NCBI GenBank assembly: GCA_016281055.1
Contig: JAEEHW010000108.1
Location: 1-64,000 of the forward strand
DNA: 64,000 bases
Direction: 5' to 3'
From: Prevotella sp.
GTDB taxonomy: Bacteria; Bacteroidota; Bacteroidia; Bacteroidales; Bacteroidaceae
In this document: positions 4,901 to 48,956 of the stretch, one piece after another
Position numbering within the stretch: the first letter of the stretch is position 1
How the letters are laid out: each line of letters opens with the position of its first letter
The notes under the pieces: generated by a model
Database searches by the model: none
The model's input: only the letters and a program-made list of their open reading frames with translations
What the model was told of the DNA's origin: nothing
Made by a program: the position numbers and the translations under genes

Positions 4901-5758
4901 GAATTCCGATTGTGCCGAAGCGTAAGCTACTGTTGCTCCATCAACATCATGATCCTTTACTGCACCACCATAATTTCCTGTCACATTAACGTAGAAGTTA
5001 TTAATTACCGAAATAGCACCATTCTTAGAACCTAAAAAAACTCCTTCTCCCTTTTTTGACCATGTAGTTGATGAATAGCTGTTATTGATGTAACCATTTT
5101 TTACGATACAATTCTCTATCGTAAATACATCATTTACATTCATGCAATGACTTACTAAGGCTGCTAAACCTTCTGAACTGTAAGTATCTATGCGGAAATT
5201 ATCTATAATTAAGTCTTTAATCCACCCTGTTCCTTCTATAACGCCAAAAAAACCTACGTATGTGCCAGCTCCATGATTATCATTTCTATCAAGGTATAAC
5301 CCACTAATAGTATGACCGTTACCATTGAATTTTCCATTAAAGTAATATTTTATCATGCCAGCACCGTTATATCCTATAGGTTTCCAATAGTGTGCGCTCA
5401 AGTCGATGTTGGCTTGCAGCTCGACGGTGCGGGCACAGTAGTATTTATCGTTTTCGATCATTATATCGTGGTTCACGTTGTAGGCATAGAGCGCAAGTTC
5501 TTCTGCCGTCGAGATGTAGATAGTGTTGTGGTCCTCGCTCTCATTAAGGCTTGTTGCCTTGTAGTCCTCCCAGTTGCCCGATGGCGACTGCGCCCACGCT
5601 GTTATCGTCGTGAGCAGCATTACAAGCAACATCATGGCTGCTCGCCTTGTCATGTTTCTTACTGCGGCCTGCGCTGTGCCGAGCCGCTGCCATGCACCCC
5701 TAAGTGTTAGTAGTCCCAGATGTCTGGGGGGGACAAGTTTTGTTGTTCTTTGTGTCAT
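1964..5758 (-). CDS. secreted surface protein with GLUG-like repeats and Listeria-Bacteroides/InlB-B-type repeat
   Basis: Signal peptide (real start probably MTRRAAMMLLVMLL..., ~5653), repeated 'GGIVG...IENC', 'YTFTMPNEDVMLYAKW', C-terminal '...GWYDLNGRRLNGKPTAKGLYIHNGRKEVV' T9SS-like tail. Confidence 0.8.
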   Translation of the reverse strand: MTQRTTKLVPPRHLGLLTLRGAWQRLGTAQAAVRNMTRRAAMMLLVMLLTTITAWAQSPSGNWEDYKATSLNESEDHNTIYISTAEELALYAYNVNHDIMIENDKYYCARTVELQANIDLSAHYWKPIGYNGAGMIKYYFNGKFNGNGHTISGLYLDRNDNHGAGTYVGFFGVIEGTGWIKDLIIDNFRIDTYSSEGLAALVSHCMNVNDVFTIENCIVKNGYINNSYSSTTWSKKGEGVFLGSKNGAISVINNFYVNVTGNYGGAVKDHDVDGATVAYASAQSEFCKKITVHNEDYYYRGDIVISVGPYDYTGSNISVTPTVTFDGTALNSDCYTVSIKNSQNETITQVKDAGIYTLTITGVNNKGYYGSKSTSFYVLGVLNGNGTENSPYEIYNLNDWRTFSLNVSLGQRLDKYYILKDNISGITEMVGDANYQFCGSFDGNQKTLTVNINETATQGTAPFREISGATIKNLTVMGSVTGTTHTAGLVGFARSGVNTIENCNVAVNVSVPATSGNRHMGGIVGHGFSSTLNLVGCVFSGTMSNSGDYAGGMQGWSDGNTLTITNCLFMGSYTGTANNGFHPIAIHNVNSSTKASVSNCYYTVAPTLTNSSLIATTGKQVRSVLAGDTYVTTCEASPIGSSIATYNVSGITVYNNGITCGSAYYYGNGDQVNLSISHGGGCEGYKFSSYTASAGTLSGSANPYTFTMPNEDVMLYAKWTPDPAHFADNGDGSYTIKTATGWSVFCDALQDNDTYNRFSGKTVKLGGDIGTEEDPVTRMAGSSGHDFKGTFDGDGKTLTVDYNATENYAAPFRNAESGCVIENLIVEGSIATSAQFAAGIVGNQFGTVTIRNCRVSATISSSKSGDGTHGGFVGVKGDSNSAHLTIEGCVFDGKIVSTGTGKDATTKCGGFVGWRKDKGSLTIINCLYAPRTDANAVSSGATFARNGGTITNCYYTQTLDEAQGAFAYIAPTAPANLGAAVTDVSYTVLTAYEKGILFDGKCYVAPEAVTFYDNAANDLTSVNGYVADVTLQGRTLYKDGKWNTICLPFAMTAEQIAANSNFAGATLMTLDVTEKNGFDTADGTLYLWFKSATEIEAGVPYLVKWTKAADYEGNEENYDISNPVFEGVTISNTAAQAVESTTAGLEIVEMVGNYSPVSVTADDKSILFLSDANTLYYSSIDRQIRSCRAYFSVPYIKGNAGAKVCASSLNFDSDEATGIISIENGDLKIEKESDGWYDLNGRRLNGKPTAKGLYIHNGRKEVVE

Positions 5759-14608: not shown

Positions 14609-14658
14609 CTTTGTACACCCTCAGAGGCTCGAACTCTGGACCCACTGATTAAGAGTCA
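14609..14658. repeat. attL: 50-bp direct repeat of the tRNA-Lys 3' half
   Basis: Identical to 20054-20103: CTTTGTACACCCTCAGAGGCTCGAACTCTGGACCCACTGATTAAGAGTCA. Confidence 0.95.
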
Positions 14659-14709
14659 TAAAATTATACATCTAAACATGTCAAAAAACATCAAAAAACT
14701 TTACTTTTA

Positions 14710-14743
14710 TTTGGCTGATTATCAAATATTTTGTAACTTTGCA
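14710..14743 (+). promoter_or_regulatory. Bacteroidota-type promoter for integrase
   Basis: -33 TTTG at 14710-14713, 20-nt spacer, -7 TAACTTTG at 14734-14741. Confidence 0.7.
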
Positions 14744-14796
14744 GCATAATAAACAAACAAACGGATTTTGGACTAAAAAAGGGCTTTTAATAGCCT

Positions 14797-14821
14797 AAAT
14801 CGTTCGCAAATCGTTCGCAAA
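14797..14821. repeat. left arm repeat AAATCGTTCGCAAATCGTTCGCAAA
   Basis: 25 nt identical to 19985-20009, tandem ATCGTTCGCAA units. Confidence 0.92.
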
Positions 14822-14829
14822 GTTGAAAT

Positions 14830-16281
14830 ATGGCTAAAAAAGTGACATCATTAACGACTAATCGTGTAGGGGATTTTAACCTCTCAATCATTCTCGACAA
14901 ACGAAGTAATAGAACCTCAGACGAATATCCTTTGTCTATTCGCTTTTACAGGTCTATCAACGGCAAGGAAGAACGTTACTTCCACCACCTTAACGAATTT
15001 TATACGGAAAAGTATTTCAATGAGGTGTGCAGCGTCAGTGCAAGCCGTAGTGCATTATTTCCCATAAAAAAGAAATGGGAAAGCATTTTGGAAGGCTACC
15101 GCACAAGATTGGCTAAAGTGGCAGAGAAGCAACAACTCTCCATGCCACTTATTCGGGCAATGCTTTCTGGTGTGGACATAGATGGACAGAAAAACATGTC
15201 CTTTATTGGTATATGGGAGGCTATCATTGCCACCAGGCGCAAGGAAGGACGTGCTGGCACTGCCGACAGTTACGAATGCGCTCTACGCTCTTTCCGAAGA
15301 GTGGTGGGGGATATTGAAGGCTTTTCCCTTAACAAGAGCGTAATTGCTAAATGGAATGACGGCATGAAGGACGGCATTGACGCACAAGGTAATTTCATTA
15401 AACAGATGTCTGACACCACAAGGGGTATCTACCTTCGTGCCTGTCGAGTGGTGTGGAACGAATGTGTCAAACAAGGTTTCCTTGCAGAAGTCGAATATCC
15501 TTTCGGCAACAAGAGTAATGACCTTATTTCGATACCACGGGGTAAAAAAAGGCAGAAGTCATACCTTAGTGTCACTGAAATGACGGAACTGTACAATGTA
15601 TTTATTGAAAAACGTTATCCAAAAGAATGGGGACCGATATATACAGAACGAGCACACCAGTCGTTGGGGTTATTCTTGGCACAATATCTTTGCAATGGAT
15701 GCAATCTCACGGACATTGCACGTCTTACTTATAATGCCGCCTATTGGCAGGACGGTGGCAGAACGCTTGAATTTCAACGCAGAAAGACCGCAGCACGCAG
15801 TAATGACAACTCAGTGGTTGTCGTACCCATCATAGAGCCACTCAAAAAAATCCTTGACGAGATAGCAGCATCACCAACAAAGAATGGGGTCGTTTTTCCT
15901 TTTATTTTCAGTGGAGTTATTGATGAGGAAGAACGTAGAAGAAAAATTCTCATGGAAAACTCCAACGTACAAGATAGGATGAATCGAATTTGTAAAGAAT
16001 TACTTGGTTGGGAGAAAAACGTTTCCGGAACCTGGGCCCGACACTCTTTTGCTACAAACCTCAAACTCGCTGGAGTCGAAGAAGAGTACATTGCCGAGAG
16101 CATGGGGCACAGCCACGGCAACGATGTGACCGCAGGCTACATGGATGTGTACCCTTTGGAAATTCGATACCGCAACAACATGAAGCTGCTCAATATAGAG
16201 GAAAAACAAGAGACGCCAGACTTAGATAAACTGTCGAAAACGGAATTGAAAGCTTTATTAAAGAAGTTGCTTAATATATAA
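14830..16281 (+). CDS. tyrosine recombinase/site-specific integrase
   Basis: C-terminal ARHSFATNLKLAGVEEEYIAESMGHSHGNDVTAGYMDVYP (R-H-x-x-R...H...Y). Confidence 0.94.
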   Translation: MAKKVTSLTTNRVGDFNLSIILDKRSNRTSDEYPLSIRFYRSINGKEERYFHHLNEFYTEKYFNEVCSVSASRSALFPIKKKWESILEGYRTRLAKVAEKQQLSMPLIRAMLSGVDIDGQKNMSFIGIWEAIIATRRKEGRAGTADSYECALRSFRRVVGDIEGFSLNKSVIAKWNDGMKDGIDAQGNFIKQMSDTTRGIYLRACRVVWNECVKQGFLAEVEYPFGNKSNDLISIPRGKKRQKSYLSVTEMTELYNVFIEKRYPKEWGPIYTERAHQSLGLFLAQYLCNGCNLTDIARLTYNAAYWQDGGRTLEFQRRKTAARSNDNSVVVVPIIEPLKKILDEIAASPTKNGVVFPFIFSGVIDEEERRRKILMENSNVQDRMNRICKELLGWEKNVSGTWARHSFATNLKLAGVEEEYIAESMGHSHGNDVTAGYMDVYPLEIRYRNNMKLLNIEEKQETPDLDKLSKTELKALLKKLLNI

Positions 16282-16329
16282 ACGATGTTCCCCACGCTAA
16301 AACATGGGAAACTTTAGCATTCTCATTAT

Positions 16330-17061
16330 TTACACGGGAGACTGTTTTTTATTCTTTCTTTTCTTTGGTGGCGTAGAACATCTAATACCATCAATGTGTT
16401 CAAACAATTGTGGCTCAACATTTGCCTTCATTGGGTCAAGAATAAAATCCACGCCTTCTCTACGTGCAAGTTTTGCAGCAGGAACGAAATCCGAATCACC
16501 AGCAAACAAAACAATAGTATCAACAAATCTTTTCAAAGCTAATGACGAAATATCGACACCTATCTTCATATCAATACCCTTCTGACGTATTTCAAGATAT
16601 ACATCGTCTTCCGCAAGGTCTTCGACACTAATCTTGCCCGATAAAAGTTCTTTCACCTTTGCTGGACGTAAATGCCAGTTATTATTATCTTTCAAAGTAC
16701 CAGTACGCAAGGCAACCTTACGCTTTTTCCTTAAAGCGTCAAGTAGTTCTTTTCGGAATTTGTATTCTGGAGTTTTACTAAAATCGACAGCTCGCTTGGT
16801 CAAGGGGTTATGGACTTTCTTGCCGAGCGGTTCGCAATCATAGTAGAAAATACGATATAATGTATTGTTTTCTCCTACATGTGACATTGCCATTGTATAT
16901 AACATATCAGCAACCTGCTCACCTGTCATAGAGCGGTCTTTATTATACAATGCGTTAAATCTCTTCACAAAAAAACCACCATCAATCAGAACTGCAATCT
17001 TAACAGGCGGAAAAAGTTTTGTCTTGCTCATTATATGATAAATATAAAAAAAAATGCTCAA
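16330..17061 (-). CDS. NYN-domain (LabA/DUF88-like, PIN-fold) putative nuclease
   Basis: IAVLIDGGFFVKRF ... KGIDMKIGVDISSLALKRFVDTIVLFAGDSDFVPAAKLARREGVDFIL; real start may be MSKTKL (~17031). Confidence 0.88.
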   Translation of the reverse strand: MSIFFYIYHIMSKTKLFPPVKIAVLIDGGFFVKRFNALYNKDRSMTGEQVADMLYTMAMSHVGENNTLYRIFYYDCEPLGKKVHNPLTKRAVDFSKTPEYKFRKELLDALRKKRKVALRTGTLKDNNNWHLRPAKVKELLSGKISVEDLAEDDVYLEIRQKGIDMKIGVDISSLALKRFVDTIVLFAGDSDFVPAAKLARREGVDFILDPMKANVEPQLFEHIDGIRCSTPPKKRKNKKQSPV

Positions 17062-17360
17062 GGGTCGGCATTTCCATTATCAAGAATAAGCGATTTGTCA
17101 CCGCTTTCGGATATGCGTAGCCATGAGCGTAATTATAATGCAAAGGTAATAAAAAAAAATAAACAAACAAATTAATTTCAAAAAAAGTGAAAATATTTAA
17201 CATTTTATAAAATATAATATTGTTTGGGGACATTACTCATTTGCTTCAAACCTCAAACCTCTGTTGGAGGAATTGCTTGGATAATTATAGTTTTTGAGGT
17301 TATTTGAGAAAATTTTCTTAAAAATCCTTAATACTTCGAGGTGTTTTGAAATAAATTTAT

Positions 17361-17700
17361 TATTTTTGCATCATCAATAACAGACTTTAGGTCTGTAAAA
17401 ATAAAAAATGGGCGAGAAAGCATGGACGACCCTCGCCAAGAGAGTTCTATTTATTGGGCTGGCTACACCGCCTTAAGCTGAGGGCAAAGCCGCTCGGCAA
17501 GCGACTAAAAACATCACAATTCGACCGCATGTAGCGATGTAATTATAAGGTAGGAACTCTCGCTTCTTTCTTCTCGCATTGTTTGCGAGGTATGCCGCAG
17601 ATATTGCGGCAATTCACTTGACTTGCGTTGGAAAAACGCGAGAAGGGAGGGGTTTATATAATATTAAGTTTTTAACTCGGTCGAATTGTGATGGATTACA
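17361..17700 (+). ncRNA. candidate structured leader/ncRNA upstream of the HTH gene
   Basis: -7-like TATTTTTGCA at 17361, then hairpins CAGAC/GTCTG 17381-17395, GGCGAG/CTCGCC 17411-17437, GAGAGTTC/GAACTCTC 17440-17561, CTCGCA/TGCGAG 17573-17589, GCCGCA/TGCGGC 17594-17610, CTTGCGTT/AACGCGAG 17622-17642. Confidence 0.5.
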
Positions 17701-18018
17701 ATGAGTACAGAACTCTTAGAGTTGCTGGAGCGTGAAATCGAAACACGCGCCAGAGCATTGGCAGCAGAAATGGTCGCTGCTAATGCGAAACCGCAATTGC
17801 CTTCGGACGTCGCACCGAATGGCGAGTTAATCACCCCTTTCACCTTCGGAGGCGAAAAGCTGCTGACAAGTCAGCAAGTGCAAGCGCTGCTCGGTGTAAA
17901 ATACCCAGCATTATGGGTAATGAACAAGAAAGGCACCCTCAAAAATCGGAAAGTCGGTGCACGAATTTTTTACAATTATGATGATGTGCATAAGCTGATG
18001 AAAGGAGGTGCGTGTTGA
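17701..18018 (+). CDS. helix-turn-helix (excisionase/MerR-like) DNA-binding protein
   Basis: LLTSQQVQALLGVKYPALWVMNKKGTLKNRKVGARIFYNYDDVHKLM. Confidence 0.8.
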   Translation: MSTELLELLEREIETRARALAAEMVAANAKPQLPSDVAPNGELITPFTFGGEKLLTSQQVQALLGVKYPALWVMNKKGTLKNRKVGARIFYNYDDVHKLMKGGAC

Positions 18019-18368
18019 CTATGGATGCAAGAACTGACCAGAAATGGGCAGAAATACTGCAGTATGCCCGTGAACATGCCACCGGGAAGGGGCTGCACAA
18101 GGGTTATCGTTGGCTTCAGGATGCCTACGAAGAATACTTCAACGACCACGAAGAACGTGTCGAGAAGGGCACCATGCCGTCATTCGGTGGTGTTTCTTTC
18201 AGCGACCATAACCGCACAGTGTTCGCTGCTCAGATAGCACGCTCATTGAGATACAACGAAAATGGCTATGGGGGTGCCAGGCTGACAGACGAACAGTTTG
18301 AGAAACTGACCGACACCCTGCAGTACATCAAGGAACACCCACAGCAGAGACAAGAACTTAGAATTTAG
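18012..18368 (+). CDS. hypothetical protein of integrative element (118 aa)
   Basis: ORF overlapping the HTH gene end; an internal Met at 18021 could be the start. Confidence 0.65.
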   Translation: MLTMDARTDQKWAEILQYAREHATGKGLHKGYRWLQDAYEEYFNDHEERVEKGTMPSFGGVSFSDHNRTVFAAQIARSLRYNENGYGGARLTDEQFEKLTDTLQYIKEHPQQRQELRI

Positions 18369-18377
18369 AAAAATGGT

Positions 18378-18456
18378 AAAAAAAGATCCCCGACAGGGGC
18401 AAATTGTCGGGGAGATTAAGCATTTTTTCAACGAGTTTCTAAATCTTTTCTCTTTA
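18378..18456 (-). ncRNA. candidate antisense RNA (ctRNA-like) opposite the rep leader
   Basis: Minus-strand promoter TTTG(18493-18490)-19 nt-TAACTTTGCA(18470-18461), then stem TCCCCGACA/TGTCGGGGA (18387-18413) followed on minus by TCTTTTTTT. Confidence 0.55.
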
Positions 18457-19463
18457 TGGATGCAAAGTTAGTAAAAAAATCTGAGATTCCAAATAATTTT
18501 AGAAATAAACTACAGAAAAGGAATAAATTTAAGTATTTTGGGTATCATCTGGCGGGAATGCTGTATTACCAAAATCCAAATAGCCAACTCGCCAAAGGGT
18601 ACAGGAACACCTTGTATTGCTGCAATATAATAGAGGTGACGGCAGAGGGGCTGGCGAAATCAAAATATTGTAAGAATCGGTGGTGCCCCATTTGCCAACG
18701 AAACAAAATGGGCGCACTCATCAATGCCTATGGGGAGAGGCTGCGGATGGAGAAAGAACTGTGGTTTCTCACACTTACACGCCCGAATGTGACAGCCGAG
18801 AAACTAAAGGCAGAGGTGGCACGCTATCAAGAGCTTTGGCGACAAATAGCCAATAGCCGTGAGTATCGGAAGGCAATGCGGAACGGGGTGATAGGCATTC
18901 GAAAATTTGAATGCACATACCACGGCAGGAAATTCCTCGAAGACGGCACTGCAGACCCTTGGTGGGATACTTACCACCCTCATTTCCATTTTTTCATTTC
19001 CAGCAAAGAGCTTGCCGATTTCATCCTTTTCCTCTGGATGCAACTCAACCCCGAGAGCAGAGATAAAGGTCAAAAATTGGAAAAAGTCGACAAGGAAGGG
19101 CGCTATCTGGAGATATTTAAGTATTTCACCAAATTAATAGCAAAGGATAGCGAGGGCAGGCGTTTCTTCGATGCCGTGCACATGAACACCATCTTTGAGG
19201 CTCTGCAAGGTCGGAGAGTGTATTTTCGGCTGGGCACTAAAAAAGCCTGGGGATGCGACGAGGTGACCGAGGAAGATGAATACCAAGTCGCAACCATAGA
19301 GACAGACGCAACGCCTTCCTTCTATGGGTGGCAAGAGTTCGAAAACGAGTTCGGTTACTACGACATCGAGACGGGCGAGGTACTGACCGAACTTCCCAAG
19401 GAGGGAAGTCTCTATGACATCGTGACCGATAGCGAGCATCGCATCCGCTCCCCCAACATCTAA
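18456..19463 (+). CDS. HUH-type (Rep_1 family-like) rolling-circle replication initiator
   Basis: CKNRWCPICQ zinc motif, HUH motif YHPHFHFFIS, downstream YLEIFKYFTKL candidate nicking tyrosine. Confidence 0.85.
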   Translation: MDAKLVKKSEIPNNFRNKLQKRNKFKYFGYHLAGMLYYQNPNSQLAKGYRNTLYCCNIIEVTAEGLAKSKYCKNRWCPICQRNKMGALINAYGERLRMEKELWFLTLTRPNVTAEKLKAEVARYQELWRQIANSREYRKAMRNGVIGIRKFECTYHGRKFLEDGTADPWWDTYHPHFHFFISSKELADFILFLWMQLNPESRDKGQKLEKVDKEGRYLEIFKYFTKLIAKDSEGRRFFDAVHMNTIFEALQGRRVYFRLGTKKAWGCDEVTEEDEYQVATIETDATPSFYGWQEFENEFGYYDIETGEVLTELPKEGSLYDIVTDSEHRIRSPNI

Positions 19464-19620
19464 ATATATTAAAAATATCAGTTATTTCTTTTCCCTTTTC
19501 TTGAAAAAAACAACTGTCATACACCAGTTGCGAACCGCAGGAAAGAGGGATGCAACACTCTTCCCTTTGCTTGGAAAACCAAAAACGCACAAAATGCCGT
19601 TTTTGTGCAAAAAATAGGTA

Positions 19621-19793
19621 TGTATAACGATGTTATACAAAGTTATACAAAAACAGCGTTTTGTTATACAAAAACGTGTTATACAAAAAATTTAGTTGTT
19701 AGCAAGAAGTCTTTTTGTTATACAACAAAAACTACAAACAAAGAAAAAGTTTCCGTATAACAACGTTATACATTGTTATACACTTTTTCTTTG
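19621..19793. repeat. iteron-like array of GTTATACA and bounding inverted repeat
   Basis: GTTATACA at 19632, 19642, 19663, 19678, 19717, 19765, 19775; inverted TGTATAAC at 19621 and GTATAAC at 19755; CAAAGAAAAAGT 19739-19750 / ACTTTTTCTTTG 19782-19793. Confidence 0.85.
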
Positions 19794-19858
19794 TTCTCTT
19801 CTTGAACTGCTCGCAGGCTCACAGTTGAAAATAATAAAACAAAAGGGATATGAAAAGT

Positions 19859-19892
19859 AAGCTTTTTTGATAAAAAAAGCTTTTCCTTGATA
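19859..19892 (+). promoter_or_regulatory. candidate rolling-circle double-strand origin
   Basis: AAGCTTTTTT-gat-AAAAAAAGCTT hairpin directly followed by CTTGATA (19886-19892), a pC194/pUB110-type nick-core match. Confidence 0.4.
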
Positions 19893-19984
19893 AGTTAGCA
19901 TAACTGCGTTACTTTATCTAATTACATTATAATTTCTGCAAACCGCATTCGTCAATGTTAAAAGAAATCATCAATATACATTAC

Positions 19985-20009
19985 AAATCGTTCGCAAATC
20001 GTTCGCAAA
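19985..20009. repeat. right arm repeat AAATCGTTCGCAAATCGTTCGCAAA
   Basis: Identical to 14797-14821. Confidence 0.92.
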
Positions 20010-20010
20010 T

Positions 20011-20046
20011 AAAAGAAAAAAGCACTTGCGATTTCTCGTAAGTGCT
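20011..20046 (-). terminator. element-borne intrinsic terminator downstream of tRNA-Lys
   Basis: Stem AGCACTTGCGA/TCGTAAGTGCT (20021-20046), minus-strand U-tract TTTTTCTTTT. Confidence 0.7.
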
Positions 20047-20053
20047 TGATTTT

Positions 20054-20103
20054 CTTTGTACACCCTCAGAGGCTCGAACTCTGGACCCACTGATTAAGAG
20101 TCA
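20054..20103. repeat. attR: 50-bp direct repeat in tRNA-Lys
   Basis: Identical to 14609-14658. Confidence 0.95.
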
Positions 20104-48322: not shown

Positions 48323-48423
48323 TGTTTTATAAAAAAATAAATAGAACCTTAGCCTATATGTAAAGGTGTAAGTTGTTCCATAGTGCCTAACCCACGAGCG
48401 CTACTATGGTTGTTAACATGATA

Positions 48424-48575
48424 TTGGCAGGTATTCTGACTTCCTCCAGCTGTCATTGCCTTCCCACAAAGTCCACAAGGACTGTGCAGTGGCTGTTGTT
48501 AATGACGCTATAACAGAGGTTACAGCAGCGGGACTGTTCAGGATTCTCACCTGATTCCCTTTTAAGCATCGGCGG
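48424..48575 (-). ncRNA. cobalamin (AdoCbl-type) riboswitch
   Basis: Minus strand reads GGGAATCAGGTGAGAATCCTGAACAGTCCCGCTGCTGTAA...ACAGCCACTG...GTGGGAAGG...GGAAGTCAGAATACCTGCC: B12 box and conserved core. Confidence 0.93.
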
Positions 48576-48956
48576 CATGATAGTCATGCTGCGTCAGCAC
48601 CAAATCTGTACAATGTTGTTGTGCGAAGCAACTAATTCTTCGCTTTGTCGATATTGCAAGTGCAAAGTTACAAACTTTTCCTGAAACCACAAAATGTTTT
48701 TGTTTTCTATTATCATTAATCCTCTTTATTATTTGCAGGTCGTCCGGCGATGTTAGAAGACGCTTCCCTAAACAAGAAAACGTCGAAAGTACCGAGCGAA
48801 CGACGTTAAGACCATACAATATGGAGGAGAATTAACTTCGTACCGCGAGATTTCTTTTCCTATTTGACCATCCCCAAACCCCATTAAAATACAAGGTTGA
48901 CACAAAAACGAAATAAAACGAAACGTAAAATAGAACAACAAATAAAAGATTATTTT

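What the first reader, a model, noticed from the sequence alone, without database searches (positions are those of the whole stretch)
17361..17700. Dense ~325-nt structured leader or ncRNA between the NYN gene and the HTH gene
Seen: a promoter-like TATTTTTGCA at 17361, then no long ORF before 17701 but at least six hairpins by eye: CAGAC/GTCTG, GGCGAG/CTCGCC, long-range GAGAGTTC/GAACTCTC, CTCGCA/TGCGAG, GCCGCA/TGCGGC, and CTTGCGTT/AACGCGAG with a GGAAA loop. Inference: a structured RNA, a regulatory leader for the HTH/Rep operon, or a DNA origin/packaging structure. I do not recognise it as a named RNA family.
Basis: partly seen in the sequence, partly recalled or inferred. Interest (0 to 1): 0.75.

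Follow-up and report, generated by a model that had tools for sequence, protein, structure and literature searches.

The report
Structured RNA leader on mobile element
Inside a small gene-hopping DNA element in a Prevotella-type bacterium, a roughly 325-base stretch encodes a conserved, knotted RNA fold that hides the start of the element's excision and replication genes, so it probably works as a switch for when the element leaves the chromosome and copies itself.

Summary
All six hairpins exist. The fold is far better than shuffles (z -6.1).

The region lies in a ~5.5-kb integrative element in tRNA-Lys: integrase, NYN cargo, RNA, excisionase-like HTH, small ORF, rolling-circle Rep_1, origin.

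One relative, in a red-deer Prevotella MAG at tRNA-Asn, keeps the RNA: 7 helix pairs changed on both sides and stayed paired, 3 became G-U wobbles, none is broken there. P3 and P7 cross and both co-vary, so this is a pseudoknot or a switch. No Rfam family matches.

Three related int+HTH loci lack the RNA and have short leaders. The likely replication origin lies elsewhere (19464-19925), so 'origin' is a poor explanation.

Best reading: a new cis-regulatory leader whose closed form hides the HTH/Rep translation start and keeps the element quiet. The trigger is unknown, transcription is untested, and only two members are known.

The parts
17361..17368 (+). -7 promoter box TATTTTTG (TAnnTTTG)
   Evidence: Conserved as TAATTTTG at L008:4117; only such motif on either strand of the leader in both copies
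17369..17693 (+). Structured RNA leader
   Evidence: z -6.1; homologue z -4.4; 7 compensatory pairs, 0 broken in L008
17380..17396 (+). P1 hairpin near the 5' end
   Evidence: A-U to G-C double change
17411..17437 (+). P2 hairpin GGCGAG/CTCGCC, 15-nt loop in both copies
   Evidence: One double change, one G-U wobble
17441..17560 (+). P3 long-range helix AGAGTTC/GAACTCT (17441-17447 with 17554-17560); crosses P7
   Evidence: One double change, one U-G wobble
17457..17472 (+). P4 hairpin (one U-C mismatch in the window, paired in L008)
17478..17497 (+). P5 hairpin CUGAG-GGC-AAA-GCC-G-CUCGG
   Evidence: All stem pairs invariant; only loop and bulge vary
17512..17527 (+). P7 5' arm
   Evidence: Perfect 16-bp complement of 17678-17693; three double changes in L008
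17678..17693 (+). P7 3' arm, ending 7 nt before the HTH ATG
   Evidence: Same 7-nt spacing in L008
17573..17589 (+). P8 hairpin CTCGCA/TGCGAG
   Evidence: One double change, one wobble
17594..17642 (+). Two window-specific hairpins, GCCGCA/TGCGGC and CTTGCGTT/AACGCGAG
   Evidence: Absent from L008
17701..18018 (+). HTH_17 protein, excisionase-like
   Evidence: Pfam PF12728 at 25.1 bits, just below its cut-off of 27; phrog_66 and phrog_7735, excisionase
18456..19463 (+). Rep_1 rolling-circle replication initiator
   Evidence: Pfam PF01446, 2.9e-16
14830..16281 (+). Tyrosine integrase
   Evidence: Pfam PF00589, PF13102
14609..14658 (.). Left att repeat (3' end of tRNA-Lys)
   Evidence: 50-bp perfect repeat of 20054-20103
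20054..20103 (.). Right att repeat inside tRNA-Lys
19464..19925 (+). Probable replication origin (not the finding): candidate sso, GTTATACA repeats, nick-like CTTGATA at 19886
   Evidence: DNA fold z -8.5, homologue z -13.1; motif shared with L008 and pRGI00604

Best explanation
17369-17693 is the structured 5' leader (a cis-regulatory RNA) of the HTH-orf-Rep_1 operon of a small integrative element that replicates as a rolling circle. Transcription starts just after the conserved -7 box. The RNA forms local hairpins (P1, P2, P4, P5, P8) and two crossing helices, P3 and the 16-bp P7. The 3' arm of P7 covers about -8 to -23 of the HTH start codon. While P7 is closed, ribosomes load poorly, so the excisionase-like HTH protein, and probably Rep, stay low and the element stays integrated. 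Opening P7 (trigger unknown: a protein, an RNA in trans, or a change between the P3 and P7 folds) would allow excision and replication. Shown here: conserved structure, covariation, strand bias, place between promoter and start codon, predicted occlusion. Inferred: transcription, repression, trigger, outcome.
For: Fold z -6.1 and -4.4 in the two copies. Seven compensatory double changes, three G-U changes valid only on the + strand, none broken in L008; 0 of 100,000 simulations of independent change reach this. 98.8% of cells paired against 33-38% with partners slid by 1-3 columns. The -7 box is conserved at the leader start with no counterpart on the - strand of the leader. P7 ends 7 nt before ATG in both copies although the loop it closes is 150 nt in one and 89 nt in the other. 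-25..-9 is 10% and 8% unpaired with the full leader, 42% and 44% without the P7 5' arm. Related int+HTH loci have the same gene order with only short leaders, so the RNA is an added or lost module between promoter and start codon.
Against: Only two sequences carry it. Transcription is not shown and no canonical -33 box was found. The displaced + strand of the replicating element would fold the same way as DNA, so strand bias does not exclude a DNA role. Rep lies two genes downstream with its own upstream hairpin, so control of Rep may be separate. Folding programs cannot judge the pseudoknot. The accessibility figures come from nested folds only.
Confidence: 0.6

Rival explanations
1. The region gives a separate or dual-function RNA that acts in trans, for example as copy-number or incompatibility control: the P7 5' arm on truncated or processed transcripts pairs with the HTH start region of other copies.
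For: The 5' arm is a perfect 16-nt complement of the HTH translation start region, duplex -26 kcal/mol in both copies. Mobile elements do carry RNAs that affect transfer (sgm-sRNA of SGI1, PMC9299015; RteR of CTnDOT, cited in PMC7366714).
Against: No terminator-like site was found on the + strand of 17361-17700. Every full-length transcript has both arms, so pairing within one molecule should win.
Confidence: 0.15
2. The structure works as DNA: a single-strand origin (sso) on the displaced + strand, or another ssDNA hairpin used in replication.
For: Found only with Rep_1 elements so far (2 of 2) and not in three related loci, two of which carry other replication or AAA proteins. DNA fold z -7.1. 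The nick-like motif is on the + strand, so the + strand would be displaced. sso function depends on structure and orientation (PMC4595007).
Against: A more strongly folding candidate lies directly 5' of the nick-like motif in both elements, z -8.5 and -13.1. The finding lies exactly between a conserved promoter box and a start codon with fixed spacing. Two Flavobacteriaceae Rep_1 elements have only ~70-76 nt before the HTH gene.
Confidence: 0.13
3. Classical attenuation: a leader peptide or an antisense RNA controls a terminator in the leader, as in amino-acid operons or pT181/pIP501-type plasmids.
For: A long structured leader before a rep operon; a 22-codon ORF at 17408-17476.
Against: The ORF is not kept in L008, where the matching frame (GTG start) stops after five codons (sequence) and no ORF of similar length exists. 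No + strand terminator in 17361-17700. No TAnnTTTG on the - strand of the leader in either copy.
Confidence: 0.06
4. Chance or decayed sequence: folded DNA without function.
For: Only two copies are known and no expression data were available.
Against: Compensatory changes in five helices and an invariant P5 hairpin between elements whose integrases differ by 17%.
Confidence: 0.03

Closest known systems
AICEs such as pSAM2 of Streptomyces (int-xis-repSA operon, PMC3218068)
   Same: Small tRNA-integrated element with tyrosine integrase, small HTH excisionase-like protein and a rolling-circle initiator; AICE initiators have been compared with the pC194 family.
   Different: AICEs have a tra gene and control the operon with the protein Pra. 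Here no tra or mob gene is found, and a structured RNA stands before the HTH gene.
Structured leaders of plasmid rep genes (pT181, pIP501, IncI/IncB repZ; from own knowledge)
   Same: A long structured leader, in IncI/IncB with a pseudoknot near the rep start, limits expression of a replication operon.
   Different: Those use antisense RNAs and, in pT181/pIP501, a terminator. Neither signal was found here. The first gene here is excisionase-like. Sequences were not compared.
RteR sRNA of CTnDOT (cited in PMC7366714) and sgm-sRNA of SGI1 (PMC9299015)
   Same: RNAs carried by integrative elements that affect their mobility.
   Different: RteR is a 90-nt trans-encoded sRNA acting on tra genes; sgm-sRNA comes from the 3' end of a primary RNA near oriT. 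Neither is described as a xis/rep leader. Sequence and structure were not compared here.
Single-strand origins of rolling-circle elements (e.g. ICEBs1 sso1, PMC4595007)
   Same: Orientation-dependent stem-loops on an element that replicates as a rolling circle.
   Different: The better candidate in this element lies at 19464-19885; the finding sits between a promoter box and a start codon.

Membership tests
Any Rfam 15 family | Covariance-model score at or above the family's gathering cut-off | tested here: not met
   No match in the region by gathering score or meaningful match up to E 10
Structured cis-regulatory 5' leader | Conserved secondary structure supported by covariation | tested here: met
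   7 double changes, 3 wobbles, 0 broken in L008; slide control 98.8% against 33-38%; two sequences only
Structured cis-regulatory 5' leader | Promoter upstream on the same strand, gene directly downstream | tested here: inconclusive
   -7 box conserved, HTH gene 7 nt downstream; no -33 match
Structured cis-regulatory 5' leader | Structure covers the translation start region or a terminator | tested here: met
   P7 3' arm covers -8 to -23; predicted occlusion in both copies; no terminator
Structured cis-regulatory 5' leader | Transcribed, and changes expression of the downstream gene | not testable with these tools
   Needs RNA-seq and reporter assays
Antisense-controlled rep attenuator (pT181/pIP501 type) | Antisense promoter inside the leader and a terminator | tested here: not met
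   No TAnnTTTG on the - strand of the leader; no + strand terminator. Consensus scans only
Leader-peptide attenuator | Conserved short ORF in the leader | tested here: not met
   22-codon ORF in the window has no counterpart of similar length in L008
Single-strand origin (sso) | Structured on the displaced strand | tested here: inconclusive
   + strand structured, but a stronger candidate lies beside the nick-like motif
Single-strand origin (sso) | Orientation-dependent lowering of ssDNA | not testable with these tools
   Needs a plasmid assay
AICE-like integrative element | tRNA-site integration with int, xis-like HTH and rolling-circle rep | tested here: met
AICE-like integrative element | FtsK-like tra gene, actinobacterial host | tested here: not met
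   The element's five genes are int, NYN, HTH, a small ORF without family match and Rep_1

The most novel reading that the evidence does not exclude
A new family of pseudoknotted RNA that acts in cis and in trans as copy-number and excision control of integrative rolling-circle elements: the P7 5' arm, released on truncated transcripts, blocks HTH/Rep translation from other copies, so the element senses its own copy number without an antisense promoter.
Probability: 0.13. Interest if true: 0.72.

Novelty: new variant of a known kind. Interest (0 to 1): 0.52.

Why it matters
How small integrative elements of Bacteroidota choose between staying in the chromosome and excising or replicating is poorly known, and few regulatory RNAs of mobile elements in this phylum have been described. 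This RNA is compact and makes a clear prediction: break and restore a 16-bp helix at a start codon. If confirmed, it adds an unlisted RNA family and a switch for a minimal element that excises and replicates itself.

Tried and rejected
Rfam scans with strict and loose thresholds gave nothing.

Searches for the RNA itself found no further members: plasmids and phages by blastn, 300 family genomes by blastn, 398 same-genus genomes by exact core motif, IMG/VR by two motifs, and a covariance model of the core over 50 relatives and 26 held loci. Exact motifs are strict, so diverged copies could be missed.

Rep-based searches gave one close relative, L008, a plasmid with a Rep of about 50% identity but no RNA, and remote ones. 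Related integrases of 28-55% identity that could be examined led to other gene contents without the RNA. IMG/VR scans with HTH and integrase gave nothing.

Rejected: leader peptide (not conserved), antisense/terminator attenuator (no signals), double-strand origin (lies elsewhere). A pairing of the P3 5' strand with GAACTCT in the first HTH codons, seen by eye, is not kept in L008. The possible P6 pairing AAGCG 17499-17503 / CGCTT 17561-17565 is invariant in both copies and could not be tested.

Full report
What was checked. Its + strand folds at -115.5 kcal/mol against -84.5 +/- 5.1 for dinucleotide shuffles (z -6.11); the - strand scores z -4.76. The main feature was missed: a perfect 16-bp inverted repeat, 17512-17527 / 17678-17693, not equalled in any of 3000 shuffles. 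Rfam gives no match.

Where it sits. The window's genome is consistent with Prevotella (the one close relative of the element is in a Prevotella MAG; the genomes are otherwise unnamed). A 50-bp perfect repeat of the 3' end of tRNA-Lys(CTT), at 14609-14658 and 20054-20103, bounds an element of about 5.5 kb: tyrosine integrase, a NYN protein on the - strand, the RNA, an HTH_17 protein with weak matches to excisionase families, a small ORF, and a Rep_1 rolling-circle initiator. No relaxase or transfer gene was recognised.

Homologue. A Rep search found one close relative, L008, in an uncultured Prevotella MAG from red deer. It has the order int-RNA-HTH-orf-Rep, with integrase 83% and HTH 79% identical, sits at tRNA-Asn(GTT) with a 47-bp repeat, and lacks the NYN gene. 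Its leader folds with z -4.44.

Covariation. On a structural alignment of eight helices (52 pairs), 41 pairs are identical, 7 changed on both sides and stayed paired, 3 changed on one side and stayed paired, 1 (in P4) is a mismatch in the window but a pair in L008, and none is broken in L008. The three one-sided changes (G-C to G-U in P2, U-A to U-G in P3, C-G to U-G in P8) are wobbles that would be A-C mismatches on the - strand. None of 100,000 simulations with independently changing 3' arms reached the observed counts. On the automatic alignment, which leaves out P1 and P8, 5 double changes remain and 98.8% of cells pair, against 33-38% when partners are slid by 1-3 columns; the shuffle control is weak with two sequences (14 of 500). 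P7 carries three double changes. P3 (17441-17447 / 17554-17560) encloses only the 5' arm of P7, so P3 and P7 cross, and both co-vary. That means a pseudoknot or two alternating folds; two sequences cannot separate these.

Link to expression. The leader starts at the only TAnnTTTG box on either strand of the leader in both copies (consensus as quoted in PMC7366714). No -33 TTG at 17-22 nt was found. P7 ends 7 nt before the ATG in both. In ensemble folding the stretch -25..-9 is 10% (window) and 8% (L008) unpaired with the whole leader, but 42% and 44% when the part up to and including the P7 5' arm is left out. That a closed P7 represses translation is inference.

Presence and absence. A profile of the two HTH proteins found relatives beside the same kind of integrase (L050/L054, L051/L055, L053/L056). 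None has the RNA. L054 carries a Rep_3 initiator and a Mob_Pre relaxase; L055 an AAA protein and an unassigned 479-aa protein; L056 looks like a remnant. In L053 the promoter reads TTTCAGTAATTTTG, as in L008, with the start codon within about 35 nt. So the RNA is a separable module between promoter and start codon, seen so far only with Rep_1, in two elements. Two Flavobacteriaceae Rep_1 elements (L009, L010) have only about 70-76 nt before the HTH gene, so Rep_1 does not require it.

Not the origin. CTTGATAAGTTAGCA at 19886 recurs in L008 and, as CTTGATACGTTAGCA, in plasmid pRGI00604, whose Rep is about 50% identical. CTTGATA matches the pC194-family nick core as I recall it. Just upstream, 19464-19885 folds as DNA with z -8.5, and its counterpart in L008 with z -13.1. 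This is where an origin would be expected. A DNA role of the finding is not excluded, because the displaced + strand would fold too (DNA z -7.1).

Mechanism proposed. Closed leader by default, little HTH and Rep, quiet integrated state; opening of P7 gives excision and replication. Shown: structure, conservation, position, predicted occlusion. Not shown: transcript, repression, trigger. Attenuation by leader peptide or antisense RNA is unlikely.

Novelty. The kind (a structured leader controlling a mobile-element operon) is known. This RNA, with its crossing 16-bp helix at a start codon, was not found in Rfam or in the papers searched. That paper library is partial, so this is not proof of absence.

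Noticed in passing
19464-19925; L008:6021-6560: Probable replication origin: very strong + strand DNA fold (z -8.5 and -13.1), GTTATACA repeated seven times in the window, nick-like CTTGATA conserved with plasmid pRGI00604.
   Followed up: partly
18388-18412; L008 about 4930-4970; L011 about 2430-2455: A hairpin just upstream of rep recurs with different sequence (CCCCGAC/GTCGGGG, CCCAGACAG/CTGTCTGGG, CCCGAGA/TCTCGGG), including in plasmid pRGI00604: possibly a second control point for Rep.
   Followed up: no
16330-17028 (- strand): NYN-domain gene (phrog_5783, 2.6e-86), cargo between integrase and RNA, absent from L008; TACCTTTG box at 17148 on its strand.
   Followed up: partly
14797-14821 and 19985-20009: Repeated 11-mers AAATCGTTCGC near both ends of the element, also in L008: probable integrase arm sites.
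   Followed up: no
14609-20103; L008:2368-6733; L054: Related integrases sit at or near different tRNA genes: Lys (window), Asn (L008), and a tRNA-Met close to the element in L054.
   Followed up: partly
48409-48619 (- strand): Cobalamin riboswitch, 86.8 bits.
   Followed up: no
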